From NCBI RefSeq assembly GCF_020784725.1, contig NZ_JAJGTZ010000004.1, positions 1 through 51,586 on the forward strand: a stretch of 51,586 bases of DNA. Direction: 5' to 3'. Both the position numbers and the translations under genes were made by a program. The notes under the pieces are model-generated. The model was not told where the DNA came from. It ran no database searches and was given only the letters and a program-made list of their open reading frames with translations. The DNA comes from Limosilactobacillus reuteri (GTDB lineage: Bacteria > Bacillota > Bacilli > Lactobacillales > Lactobacillaceae). Of this stretch, positions 1,089 through 25,930 are shown one piece after another; positions within the stretch are counted from its first letter, which is position 1, and each line of letters starts with the position of its first letter.

Positions 1089-1532
1089 AGAGAGTAGGAA
1101 ATAACTTTCTCGACATGACAGTGGGCTAAGCTAGGCCAATGCAATGACTAGCACGGCACGGGCTGATTATCATTCGTACTTAGACTCGCGCCTTGTGGCA
1201 ACGTGAAGCTAGTTCCATGTTATATTACTAGTGTTCATAAAAGCAGTTGAGGCTGAGAGAAAACAAAAATTTTCTCTCAGCCTCTTCAATAATAAAAGAA
1301 ACAAAAATTTTTAATGGATGAACAGTCATGAACTATTGGTAATAGAATTATTTACTAAAAGTCAATTAAGAAGTAATACGAACTAGAGACTAGCATAATA
1401 TTAACTCCTGTAATTTTTGCCCATCACCTGAATTAAAGTGTTTCTTCTTTAAAAAAACTAATAAAGTTTAAATTAGGTTCTTGTCTGTTGTTGTCTTTTT
1501 AGGTACCATTACGTAAATGGAGGAATCGTTAA
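1089..1532. other. Gene-free stretch before the acetyltransferase
   Basis: No open frame with a ribosome binding site was found here. It holds the hairpin at 1247-1290, then AT-rich sequence leading to the acetyltransferase ribosome binding site (GGAGGA just before 1533). Nothing else was recognised. Confidence 0.6.
1247..1290. terminator. Terminator-like hairpin
   Basis: A long near-perfect stem (TTGAGGCTGAGAGAAAA against its complement) encloses a short loop. There is no strong T-run on either side, so termination efficiency is uncertain. Hairpins with the same GAGGCTGAG-type arms occur at 38167 and 51421, which suggests a common terminator style in this genome. Confidence 0.5.
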
Positions 1533-2084
1533 ATGATCGAAGTACGTAAAGTGTCTACAAAGTCAAATGATTTTAAGAATATCAAGCAGGTTTATAATAC
1601 CGTATTTCCACAAAATGAACTTTTACCATTATCCTTGCTTAGAATGCGGGCCCAGGCTGGAAAAGCTGAATTTTGCAGTATTTATAATGAAGAAAAGTGG
1701 GTGGGCTTTTTCTACACAGTTTACAATAAACGAATAGCCTACATTTTCTTCTTGGCAATTGATCCGCGGTATCATGGTCAGGGTCTTGGGAGCGCAACTT
1801 TAGGTATGCTAAAGAAACGTTATGCCGGAAAAATAGTCACCCTTAGTGCTGAACGTCCAAATAGCCAGGCCGCTAATAATGAACAACGAATCAGACGACA
1901 TCGTTTCTACGCCAAAAACGGGTTTATCAAAACTGGCTTTTATACCGTTGAAAAAGATAATGAAAAATTTGATCTTTTAAGTACACAACCTAATGTAAAT
2001 CCACAGCTTTACCAACAACTAATGGATAGCTATTTGACTAAGCATCGACGTCATTACTTACCATATAAAATTATTAAAGAGTAA
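1533..2084 (+). CDS. GNAT family N-acetyltransferase
   Basis: This 183-residue protein has the GNAT fold signature. Residues about 40-135 form the acetyl-CoA binding core, with the motif A element RYHGQGLGSATL (R/Q-x-x-G-x-G/A) after a strand ending FLAIDP, and a later helix with RFYAKNGF typical of the last GNAT motif. Such enzymes move an acetyl group from acetyl-CoA to an amine; the substrate cannot be read from the sequence. The start has GGAGGA 7 bp upstream. The gene is monocistronic: its stop overlaps the edge of the structured repeat at 2084. Confidence 0.85.
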   Translation: MIEVRKVSTKSNDFKNIKQVYNTVFPQNELLPLSLLRMRAQAGKAEFCSIYNEEKWVGFFYTVYNKRIAYIFFLAIDPRYHGQGLGSATLGMLKKRYAGKIVTLSAERPNSQAANNEQRIRRHRFYAKNGFIKTGFYTVEKDNEKFDLLSTQPNVNPQLYQQLMDSYLTKHRRHYLPYKIIKE

Positions 2085-2266
2085 AAATAGGGGGCGAGAC
2101 AGAAGTCACTTGTGACTTCGTTTTTCGACGCGAAGCTAGCCTCTGGGAGCCCCCGCAAGCAACAATAGGCCTCTAATGTTCGGTTTTGCCGGACATTAGA
2201 GGCCATTGTTGTACTGCGTATTTGCTTTTTATAAAAGTATCTTAACTTATGTCACAGTCCTATTTT
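2084..2266. repeat. Structured ~183-bp intergenic repeat, copy 1
   Basis: The two ends pair (AAAATAGG with CCTATTTT). Inside are a small hairpin at 2102-2119 (GAAGTCAC/GTGACTTC) and a long hairpin at 2160-2211, in which CAACAAT pairs with ATTGTTG and GGCCTCTAATGT pairs with ACATTAGAGGCC around a T-rich loop. A second copy lies at 19911-20092 with compensatory changes in the stems. It sits between two convergent genes and overlaps the stop codons of both. It could be a MITE-like element, a bidirectional terminator or an RNA gene; no coding potential was seen. Confidence 0.8.
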
Positions 2267-19910: not shown

Positions 19911-20092
19911 AAAAGGGGGGGCGAGACAGAAGTCACTTATGACTTCGTTTTTCGACGCAAAGCTAGCTCTGGGAGTCCCCGTAAGCAACAATAGGCCTCC
20001 AACGTTCGTTTTTGCCGGACGTTGGAGGCCTATTGTTGTACTGCATATTTGCTTTTTATGAAAGCAACTTGACTTATGTTATAGTCCCTTTT
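19911..20092. repeat. Structured ~182-bp intergenic repeat, copy 2
   Basis: This is the same element as 2084-2266. The ends pair as AAAAGGG/CCCTTTT. The small hairpin is at 19929-19946. The long hairpin at 19986-20038 is perfect in its outer 20 pairs (CAACAATAGGCCTCCAACGT and complement). Compared with copy 1, two T-A pairs became C-G, an outer bulge is closed, and the terminal stem changed on both sides. It sits between hdeD and the small gene at 20112, whose stop codon lies 20 bp beyond its right end. Confidence 0.8.
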
Positions 20093-20111
20093 GTCGTAAT
20101 TTTCCAGGAAA

Positions 20112-20279
20112 TTAAAGGTGCTCTTTAATCCCGTTGGGAAAATCCTTATCAATCTCCTTTAAGATTGGTAATAATGAATTGACATATTCATGATATGCTT
20201 CAATTGGCTTTAGATCTTTTGCTCGTGATTGTAGTAAGGTAAGAGCAATATCGTGCGCTCTTTGTTCATTTGTAATCAT
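20112..20279 (-). CDS. Small hypothetical protein, 55 aa
   Basis: The ATG at 20279 is preceded by GGTGG at a normal distance. The 55-residue protein is soluble and helical (MITNEQRAHDIALTLLQ to FPNGIKEHL) with no membrane segment. It is not a family I recognise. It lies 11 bp downstream of the VanZ-like gene on the same strand, so the two are probably co-transcribed. Confidence 0.65.
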   Translation of the reverse strand: MITNEQRAHDIALTLLQSRAKDLKPIEAYHEYVNSLLPILKEIDKDFPNGIKEHL

Positions 20280-24344: not shown

Positions 24345-24360
24345 TATTCTCGTTATAAAG

Positions 24361-24455
24361 CAATTCCCGATAGGATTCACGTCTGAACGTGAAGATGCCT
24401 TGTAACCGCAACTACAAACTATTTGAAAGTTTCAATAGAATATGGGGGAATTAGA
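24361..24455 (+). promoter_or_regulatory. SMK-box (SAM-III) riboswitch
   Basis: The conserved elements are present in order: TTCCCGATAGGAT, a hairpin TTCACGT-CTGA-ACGTGAA, and the core AGATGCCTTGTAACCG. After a linker comes GGGGGAAT, the Shine-Dalgarno sequence, which can pair with ATTCCC at the 5' side. When SAM binds, this pairing hides the ribosome binding site of metK. The linker contains an extra hairpin (CTATT-T-GAAA/TTTCAATAG) not needed by the core. SMK boxes are typical of Lactobacillales metK genes. Confidence 0.93.
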
Positions 24456-24457
24456 AA

Positions 24458-25645
24458 ATGGCAGAACGACATTTATTTACATCCGAATCAGTATCAGAGG
24501 GACATCCAGATAAGATTGCTGACCAAATCAGTGACGCGATTTTAGATGAATTGCTTAAGAAGGATCCTGATTCACGGGTTGCAGTGGAAACATCAGTTAC
24601 TACTGGATTAGTATTAGTCTTTGGTGAAGTTTCTACTAAGGCCTATGTTAATATCCAACAGATTGTGCGGGACACAATTCGTAAGATCGGTTATACAGAT
24701 GGCAAGTACGGTTTCGATGCTGATAACTGTGCGGTTATCACTGCGATCGATGAACAATCACCAGACATTGCGCAAGGGGTTGATGACTCCTTAGAAACGC
24801 GTGAAGGTGAAGCTGACCCGCTTGATAAGATTGGTGCCGGTGACCAAGGATTGATGTTTGGTTACGCTACTGACGAAACACCTGAATACATGCCATTGAC
24901 ATTGGTTTTAAGCCATAAATTAATGCGTAAGATTGCTCAACTACGTAAGGATGGTGTTATCTCTTACCTTCGTCCAGATGCAAAGGCCGAAGTAACTGTA
25001 GAATACGATGAGAATGACAAGCCATTACGTGTTGATACCGTTGTTTTAAGTACCCAGCATGATCCAGAGGTTTCACTTGATCAAATTAAAAAGGATATTA
25101 AAGAACAAGTGATTGAAGCAGTCATTCCAGCTGAGTACCTTGATGACCAAACTAAGTACTTCATTAATCCAACCGGTCGCTTTGTAATCGGTGGACCTCA
25201 AGGGGATGCTGGTTTAACTGGACGAAAGATTATTGTTGATACTTATGGTGGAGCTGCCCATCATGGTGGTGGAGCCTTTTCTGGCAAGGATGCTACTAAG
25301 GTTGACCGTTCTGCTAGTTATGCTGCGCGCTACATTGCTAAAAACATTGTTGCAGCGGGTTATGCTAAGAAGGCTGAAATTCAAGTTGCTTATGCCATCG
25401 GGGTAGCAGAACCAGTATCGATCATGATTAATACTTATGGTACCGGTACCCGTTCAGAAGAAGAATTAATTGCCGCTGTTCGAAAAGTATTTGATTTACG
25501 TCCAGCTGGAATTATTGAAATGCTTGACTTGAAGCGGCCAATTTACAAGCAAACTGCTGCTTATGGTCACTTTGGTCGGACTGATGTGGATTTACCATGG
25601 GAACACCTTGATAAAGTTGACGAATTAAAAGAAATTTTAGGCTAA
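24458..25645 (+). CDS. metK: S-adenosylmethionine synthetase
   Basis: The 395-residue enzyme makes SAM from methionine and ATP. The family hallmarks are visible: [17 protein letters not shown] at the start, the ATP-binding loop [12 protein letters not shown] near residue 126, and the phosphate loop GGGAFSGKD near residue 270. Length is normal. The start codon lies 8 bp after the GGGGG Shine-Dalgarno of the SMK box, so translation is controlled by SAM. No other methionine gene is adjacent. Confidence 0.98.
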
Positions 25646-25696: not shown

Positions 25697-25930
25697 TAAA
25701 TATTTGATCGTAATAGAAATAGTAGTTTTTGACGAGGTCAGCAGAGATCCTGTGGTGGTGTGAACAGGAGACTGGTCATTTACGAACTCATCTAGATGTG
25801 ATTATTACTGAATTTTAGTAGGTAATGACGTTTACCGCGTTAAGGTCCTAAGCGCCATGGATTCCATGGAAAACGGGTGGTACCGCGGAGTTATTTCGTC
25901 TCGTAGATTGATTTCTACGGGACTTTTTTA
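25697..25930 (+). promoter_or_regulatory. T-box leader of leuS (specifier CTC)
   Basis: The stem I region holds AGGAGACTGG-type elements and a specifier loop GAACTC, giving the Leu codon CTC at 25787-25789. The T-box sequence GGGTGGTACCGCG is at 25875-25887. The antiterminator competes with a terminator hairpin GTCTCGTAGA/TCTACGGGAC (25898-25923) followed by seven T. Uncharged tRNA-Leu would stabilise the antiterminator and switch on leuS. Confidence 0.92.

What the first reader, a model, noticed from the sequence alone, without database searches (positions are those of the whole stretch)
2084..2266. Intergenic repeat with compensatory base changes (copies at 2084 and 19911)
Two copies about 18 kb apart share their whole architecture: paired ends, a small hairpin and a 20-pair long hairpin. 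Where they differ in the stems, both sides changed together: CTCTAATGT/ACATTAGAG became CTCCAACGT/ACGTTGGAG, and the closing AAAATAGG/CCTATTTT became AAAAGGG/CCCTTTT. That is the signature of selection on structure rather than sequence. It could be a non-autonomous MITE with foldback ends, a 3'-end RNA element or an undescribed RNA family. Copy 1 lies at the 3' ends of two convergent genes and copy 2 downstream of the small gene at 20112.
Basis: seen in the sequence. Interest (0 to 1): 0.72.

Follow-up and report, generated by a model that had tools for sequence, protein, structure and literature searches.

The report
Mobile element that replaces gene terminators
The repeat is a short mobile DNA element of a gut lactobacillus that inserts by swapping out the hairpin that ends a gene's transcript, and it appears to bring a stop signal of its own.

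Summary
The two copies are real (elements 2090-2261 and 19917-20088), members of a dispersed ~170-bp family (43 matches in this genome). Their ends, GGGAGCGAGACAGAAGT / GGGACTGTGACATAAGT, match the terminal repeats of IS1182-family insertion sequences in sister species. At 18 of 25 sites examined, at least one close relative has a short segment in place of the repeat; 44 of these 51 segments (16 of 18 sites) are hairpins more stable than 99 of 100 shuffles, centred on the lost segment to a median of 1 nt. So the repeat replaced an intrinsic-terminator-like hairpin, without target duplication: the insertion mode reported for IS1272 (PMC4923244, PMC5678879), here in a gene-less element. The internal stems do covary (22 of 36 pairs) and look like a bidirectional terminator, so the element probably supplies a substitute; termination is inferred, not measured. 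A second element family with other IS1182-like ends occupies the same places in sister species at 7 of the sites, with one copy in this window.

The parts
2090..2261 (+). group-A element, copy 1 (172 bp)
   Evidence: ends located (L001:1521-1692); replaces a hairpin present in five relatives
19917..20088 (+). group-A element, copy 2 (172 bp)
   Evidence: L011:1507-1678; one search shows a hairpin at this site in G034 and G037; G002 and G004 hold group-B element sequence there
2084..2089 (.). left residual arm of the replaced hairpin, copy 1
   Evidence: aligned to the relatives' terminator-like hairpin
2262..2266 (.). right residual arm of the replaced hairpin, copy 1
19911..19916 (.). left residual arm at copy 2
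   Evidence: AAAAGG; relative G037 has TAAAAG|CCGGAAG...CTTTCGG|CTTTTG
20089..20093 (.). right residual arm at copy 2
2102..2119 (+). hairpin H1 followed by GTTTTT; terminator-like on the + strand
   Evidence: scan; covariation; 52 of 59 sequences keep hairpin and T-run
19929..19946 (+). hairpin H1 of copy 2 followed by GTTTTT
   Evidence: scan
2160..2211 (+). long hairpin P2, copy 1
   Evidence: folds; helix 2
19986..20038 (+). long hairpin P2, copy 2
   Evidence: fold; self-match
1093..1286 (-). group-B element: a second family with the same siting habit
   Evidence: 80% identical over 194 bases to a copy elsewhere in the genome; flanks ATTGAAGA / TTCAAT are complementary

Best explanation
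The repeat is a non-autonomous mobile element (MITE) of the IS1182 insertion-sequence family in the Limosilactobacillus reuteri group. A transposase acting in trans recognises its ends and inserts it into intrinsic-terminator-like hairpins, discarding the hairpin and leaving only outer A-tract and T-tract arms, with no target duplication (replacement shown by comparison of genomes; the transposase step inferred). The element carries structured RNA of its own: H1 plus a T-run on the + strand, and a P0/H1 hairpin plus the site's residual T-tract on the - strand. The gene that lost its terminator thus gains a substitute, which would explain why the insertions are tolerated and why the internal stems are kept by compensatory change (inferred).
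For: Ends equal to IS1182-family terminal repeats (L. agrestis right end the same as the element's, its transposase 84% identical to the G042 one). Hairpin in place of the element at 18 of 25 sites (51 site-genome pairs); 44 of 51 beat 99 of 100 shuffles; median axis offset 1 nt among those with at least 8 pairs across the centre. Flanks complementary beyond composition, 6 of 2000 permutations as high. Site: 10 convergent, 13 tandem, 0 divergent, 2 with one neighbour uncalled. Stems covary, 22 of 36 pairs. H1 and T-run kept in 52 of 59; - strand end folds at -17 to -27 kcal/mol. Published precedent for the insertion mode.
Against: No IS1182 transposase was found in this draft genome, so the mover is assumed from relatives. 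7 of the 51 segments are not convincing hairpins by shuffling (four at L012, L007/G004, L013/G002, L011/G036). The + strand 3' end of the element is a weak fold (-3 to -15), so + strand termination must rest on H1. P2, the largest stem, has no T-run directly after it and no role in this model. No transcript data.
Confidence: 0.85

Rival explanations
1. An ordinary MITE that inserts into A/T-rich intergenic DNA next to gene ends; terminators were lost afterwards, and the internal hairpins are by-products of foldback origin.
For: Many families of MITE sit in intergenic DNA; gene ends commonly have terminators, so finding hairpins there is not in itself surprising.
Against: The lost interval coincides with the hairpin at most sites, and the outer arms remain on both sides of the element; compensatory changes in the internal stems are not expected of by-products.
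Confidence: 0.08
2. A structured RNA family (regulatory or 3'-end RNA) that is spread by duplication and not by a transposase.
For: Strong covariation, position at gene 3' ends, compatibility of P0 with the - strand transcript.
Against: The ends match those of IS1182 elements, and unrelated sites in different species were taken in either orientation with replacement of a hairpin.
Confidence: 0.04
3. The element is ancestral at these sites, and the relatives' hairpins are deletion products of it.
For: Some copies are old: L025 is shared by 5 of 5 relatives other than G035.
Against: At a given site the hairpins of several relatives are homologous to each other and do not resemble the element (e.g. 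L003 in five relatives); at different sites they are unrelated.
Confidence: 0.02

Closest known systems
IS1272 / TnSha1 of staphylococci, IS1182 family (PMC4923244 passages; PMC5678879 abstract and passages)
   Same: IS1182-type ends; insertion into hairpins, several confirmed there as terminators; partial or whole loss of the hairpin; no target duplication
   Different: Those carry a transposase (and fabI in TnSha1); this is a gene-less element of ~170 bp with conserved internal RNA-like structure, in lactobacilli
IS1182-family MITEs of Methanosarcina acetivorans and Paracoccus yeei (PMC3852290, PMC11578231; passages)
   Same: Short gene-less elements assigned to IS1182 transposases by their terminal repeats
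   Different: MITEPye1 is reported with direct repeats; I saw no mention of terminator replacement or covarying stems in the passages
SPRITE, BOX and RUP repeats of Streptococcus pneumoniae (PMC10969869 passages)
   Same: Small dispersed intergenic repeats; SPRITE is described as rho-independent-terminator-like
   Different: Other sequences and hosts; hairpin replacement is not mentioned in the passages seen; not compared by sequence here
EFAR repeats of Enterococcus faecalis (recalled, no paper seen)
   Same: Recalled as intergenic foldback repeats proposed to act as bidirectional terminators
   Different: Not compared here; the search listed no paper on them; a lead only

Membership tests
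MITE of an IS1182-family element | short, many copies, terminal inverted repeats | tested here: met
   151-179 bp in the 20 complete own copies, 43 matches, ends 14 of 18 identical in inverted orientation by eye
MITE of an IS1182-family element | ends match those of a transposase-bearing IS of the family | tested here: met
   group-A IS1182 elements in G042, G047, G010, G031 and one end in G002; transposase over the NF033551 cut-off
MITE of an IS1182-family element | partner IS present in the same genome | tested here: not met
   0 matches in G000; the genome is a draft in 43 contigs; the partner is present in the sister species L. agrestis
MITE of an IS1182-family element | mobilised in trans by the transposase | not testable with these tools
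   needs a laboratory assay
IS1272-type hairpin-replacing insertion | target is a hairpin; hairpin lost; no target duplication | tested here: met
   18 of 25 sites with a short segment in a relative, 44 of 51 segments clear hairpins
Intrinsic (bidirectional) terminator | GC-containing hairpin followed by a T-run, on each strand | tested here: inconclusive
   + strand H1 plus GTTTTT; - strand end hairpin with 3-7 T in the next 8 bases; no transcript data
a family in Rfam release 15 | match at gathering threshold | tested here: not met
   Searches (window; five loci, relaxed threshold) gave only matches far below gathering scores for the repeat
EFAR | sequence similarity to EFAR | not tested
   recalled only; no EFAR sequence or paper seen

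The most novel reading that the evidence does not exclude
A mobile terminator: a selfish DNA element that spreads by exchanging host terminators for its own covarying bidirectional terminator, in competition with a second, independent family for the same places, so that transcript ends across a bacterial lineage are repeatedly rebuilt by transposable elements.
Probability: 0.6. Interest if true: 0.78.

Novelty: new variant of a known kind. Interest (0 to 1): 0.62.

Why it matters
It extends hairpin-replacing transposition, reported for a staphylococcal IS, to gene-less repeats in lactobacilli, and offers a natural experiment: orthologous gene ends that carry a native hairpin in one species and a transposed substitute, of either of two families, in another. 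It is also a caution: matched differences between the arms of two repeat copies can come from different insertion sites and not from selection on RNA.

Tried and rejected
Rfam gave nothing for the repeat at gathering threshold and only weak unrelated matches at a relaxed one. A TA target duplication, considered from flanks, was dropped once empty sites were seen. The closing pair as covariation was rejected. Group-B IS1182 as mover of this element was rejected because its ends are GAGGCTGGGAAAAAACT-like. The measure 'at least 8 pairs across the centre' is a weak control: 322 of 678 random windows also meet it; I rely on shuffles, axis offset and homology. By that measure 17 of 18 sites pass; L016 fails because its alignment runs into the element.

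Left out of the counts: G035, whose gene order differs around these sites; three pairs with gaps under 15 (L016/G002, L020/G034, L025/G035); 13 pairs with gaps over 120, of which 10 hold group-B sequence only, 2 hold group-A sequence (one with an 82-base group-B stretch) and 1 is unresolved; pairs where one flank did not align near the site. Of the 30 own loci, 24 sites plus L001 were examined; L018, L026 and L027 lie at contig ends and were not, and L021 and L022 are the other halves of L008 and L009. The 13 weaker matches that were not fetched were not examined. In one search two more distant genomes, G007 and G038, also have both flanks of copy 1 without the repeat between them; their gaps were not examined for hairpins. 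In one search the crude search for end repeats found group-A ends in 8 and group-B ends in 7 of 33 loci; the rest gave none or chance repeats (some group-B ends are visible beside them by eye). Searches scored at most 17 and 4 candidates per genome, so copy numbers and the family-wide count are lower bounds. One search has no valid comparison for L192 (see below).

Full report
What is there. The copies at 2084 and 19911 belong to a dispersed family: 43 matches in this 2.0 Mb draft, about 38 places after setting aside three opposite-strand self-matches of the palindromic hairpin and joining two copies split by N. Of the 30 loci fetched, 20 carry both ends: 15 are 169-179 bp and 5 are 151-155 bp, lacking about 21 internal bases. 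The consensus ends are GGGAGCGAGACAGAAGT and, on the other strand, GGGACTGTGACATAAGT.

Distribution. With a 170-base copy as query 34 of 47 genomes of the genus match. Of 201 genomes drawn from the family 7 match: 6 of the genus, this one included, and one other with a 24-base match only (at most 4 candidates scored per genome).

Ends belong to IS1182. The IS1182 transposase model matches 24 of 50 genomes of the genus, 12 over its cut-off, and not this one. Two groups appear by their ends. Group A (L039 G042, L040 G047, L041 G010, six loci of G031, and the one visible end of L042 in G002) has GGGGCTGTGACATAAGTC or, in G002, GGGACTTATGTCACAGTCCC, which is the right end of the repeat. Group B (L032, L227, L237 of G031; L034 and L233 of G034, one element; L037 and L058 of G005) has GAGGCTGGGAAAAAACT or close to it. 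The group-A protein P0001 scores 311 bits to the IS1182 model, cut-off 270, with DDE_Tnp_1, DUF772 and DDE_Tnp_1_6. Among eight genomes searched with it, G002 has an 84% identical copy, this genome, G004 and G022 none, and the other four more distant ones, 51% identical at most apart from one 66-residue stretch at 71% in G036. In G015 a group-A IS begins within the long hairpin of a related repeat (L044:1340); the contig ends before its other side.

Empty sites show replacement. The flanks of copy 1 match five close relatives as two pieces with a short gap, and the gap holds a terminator-like hairpin: L. agrestis GAGTAAAAATA[AATCCCCACTACCTAAATGATAGTGAGGATT]TATTTAGTTTTTC against GAGTAAAAATA[element]TATTTTAGTTTTTC here. 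I located 24 further sites in six relatives, fetched 113 regions and compared them. With copy 1, 18 of 25 sites have at least one relative with a short segment instead of the element, 51 site-genome pairs after the exclusions told under Tried and rejected. Of these 51 segments 44, at 16 of 18 sites, are more stable than at least 99 of 100 dinucleotide shuffles; the mean energy is -17.9 against -8.5 kcal/mol for 678 windows drawn elsewhere in the fetched regions; where at least 8 pairs cross the centre, the hairpin axis is a median of 1 nt from the centre of the lost segment. The seven weak ones are four at L012, L007/G004, L013/G002 and L011/G036. Gene ends often have terminators, so their presence alone proves little; what counts is that they fill the replaced interval and that their outer arms flank the element. 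At the remaining 7 sites no relative gave a usable short segment; at six of them (not L014) at least one relative has the element itself.

The closing AAAATAGG/CCTATTTT and AAAAGGG/CCCTTTT are the element's ends plus such left-over arms, from two different hairpins. Over the 20 complete copies the two flanks are complementary beyond composition: 5.2 of 8 against 4.6 when right flanks are dealt out anew, 6 of 2000 permutations as high. It is a mark of insertion, not of selection on RNA.

Internal structure is kept. From 141 profile matches in the held sequences I took the 62 that reach both ends of the model, less N-containing and identical ones: 59. On their alignment, not fitted to a structure, 36 pairs of H1, P2 and its base are formed in 97.0% of cells and 22 pairs have a change on both sides; 0 of 500 shuffles reach any of the five measures, and sliding the partner by 1-3 columns lowers pairing to 33-45%. 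The shuffles do not keep relatedness, and orthologous copies are among the 59. RNAalifold finds most of H1 and P2 on its own. G-U cells exceed A-C cells 182 to 35, but 58 of the 182 come from one pair that is G-U throughout and 22 from the loop-closing pair, so a preference for the + strand is only suggested.

Terminator logic (inferred). On the + strand H1 is followed by GTTTTT or a near variant: 52 of 59 sequences keep at least 6 of 7 pairs and at least 4 T after it, and the scan flags it in both window copies, where 0.3 and 0.4 terminator-like sites are expected from shuffles. On the - strand the left end pairs with the inner CCCCC block around H1 (P0): the fourth pair is A-C in + letters in 49 of 56 sequences, that is G-U in the - strand transcript, and A-T or G-C in 6; the sixth is C-G in 44 and T-A in 8 of 56. 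In the 20 complete own copies the - strand end folds at -17 to -27 kcal/mol with 3-7 T in the next 8 bases; the + strand 3' end is weak, -3 to -15. Of 25 sites, by a simple ORF call, 10 lie between convergent genes, 13 between tandem genes, none between divergent genes, and 2 have one neighbour uncalled.

Two families, same places. In 10 site-genome pairs at 7 of the sites the relative carries a different element, called group B here because its ends (GAGGATGAGAAAAAAC, GAGGCTGAGAGAAAAC) resemble those of the group-B IS (at L011/G002 only 98 of 190 bases match). Conversely, at the place where L. agrestis has the group-A element of L195, this genome, G034 and G036 have a plain hairpin and L. balticus a group-B element; at the place of L194, L. 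balticus and G034 have group A, this genome group B, and G036, G037 and G002 a plain hairpin. A group-B copy lies in this window at 1093-1286 with arms ATTGAAGA/TTCAAT.

Known and new. Insertion of IS1272 and TnSha1 into hairpins, several confirmed as terminators, with deletion and no duplication is in PMC4923244 (passages), and as inverted-repeat replacement in PMC5678879 (abstract and passages). IS1182-family MITEs are listed in PMC3852290 and PMC11578231 (passages). PMC9208149 reports IS1182 as over-represented between convergent genes (passage). A MITE review, PMC10969869, does not contain the terms IS1182 or Lactobacill (passages). Ten searches of open-access papers listed no paper that I recognised as describing this repeat or a MITE that replaces terminators; most listed papers were seen as titles and abstract starts only, and subscription journals are largely missing. 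Hence: a new variant of a known kind.

Limits. No transposition assay, transcript data or dated tree; the mover is not found in this draft; terminator function is predicted; P2, the largest stem, has no role that I can show. A possible one is as a landing place for further IS (L044).

Noticed in passing
window 1093-1286 (-); also L328, L086, L076, L181, L143, L146, L128, L341: A second dispersed element family (group B) with ends like the other IS1182 group of the genus; it takes the same gene-end positions and shares the inner motif CTAGCTTCGCGTCG with the long variant of group A.
   Followed up: partly
L044:1279-1340 (G015): A group-A IS1182 element begins inside the long hairpin of a related repeat, so the repeat's own hairpin may serve as a target; the contig ends before the other side.
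   Followed up: partly
L059:3187-3250 (G036): A group-B IS is followed by TTCTTAACTAAGGGACTTATGTCACAGTCCCTTTTTT, which looks like the right end of a group-A element: possible nested replacement.
   Followed up: no
G035: L067, L098, L108, L121, L122: Around the sites compared, genes of G035 are in another order or orientation than in this genome, often with intergenic DNA missing; rearranged, or an assembly problem.
   Followed up: partly
L026:1-123 and L027:1642-1759: At two contig ends a copy of the repeat is cut by the same foreign sequence (GGGTATCTGTCAACTGG...), probably another insertion sequence.
   Followed up: no
L101:246-394 (G002): A variant whose whole left part is one long hairpin (GGGAATGAGGCAGAAGTCA...TGACTTCTGCCTCGTTCTCCC), a natural strengthening of the P0/H1 pairing.
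   Followed up: no
window 24348-24460 and 25698-25906: SAM-III riboswitch and T-box leader by Rfam.
   Followed up: no
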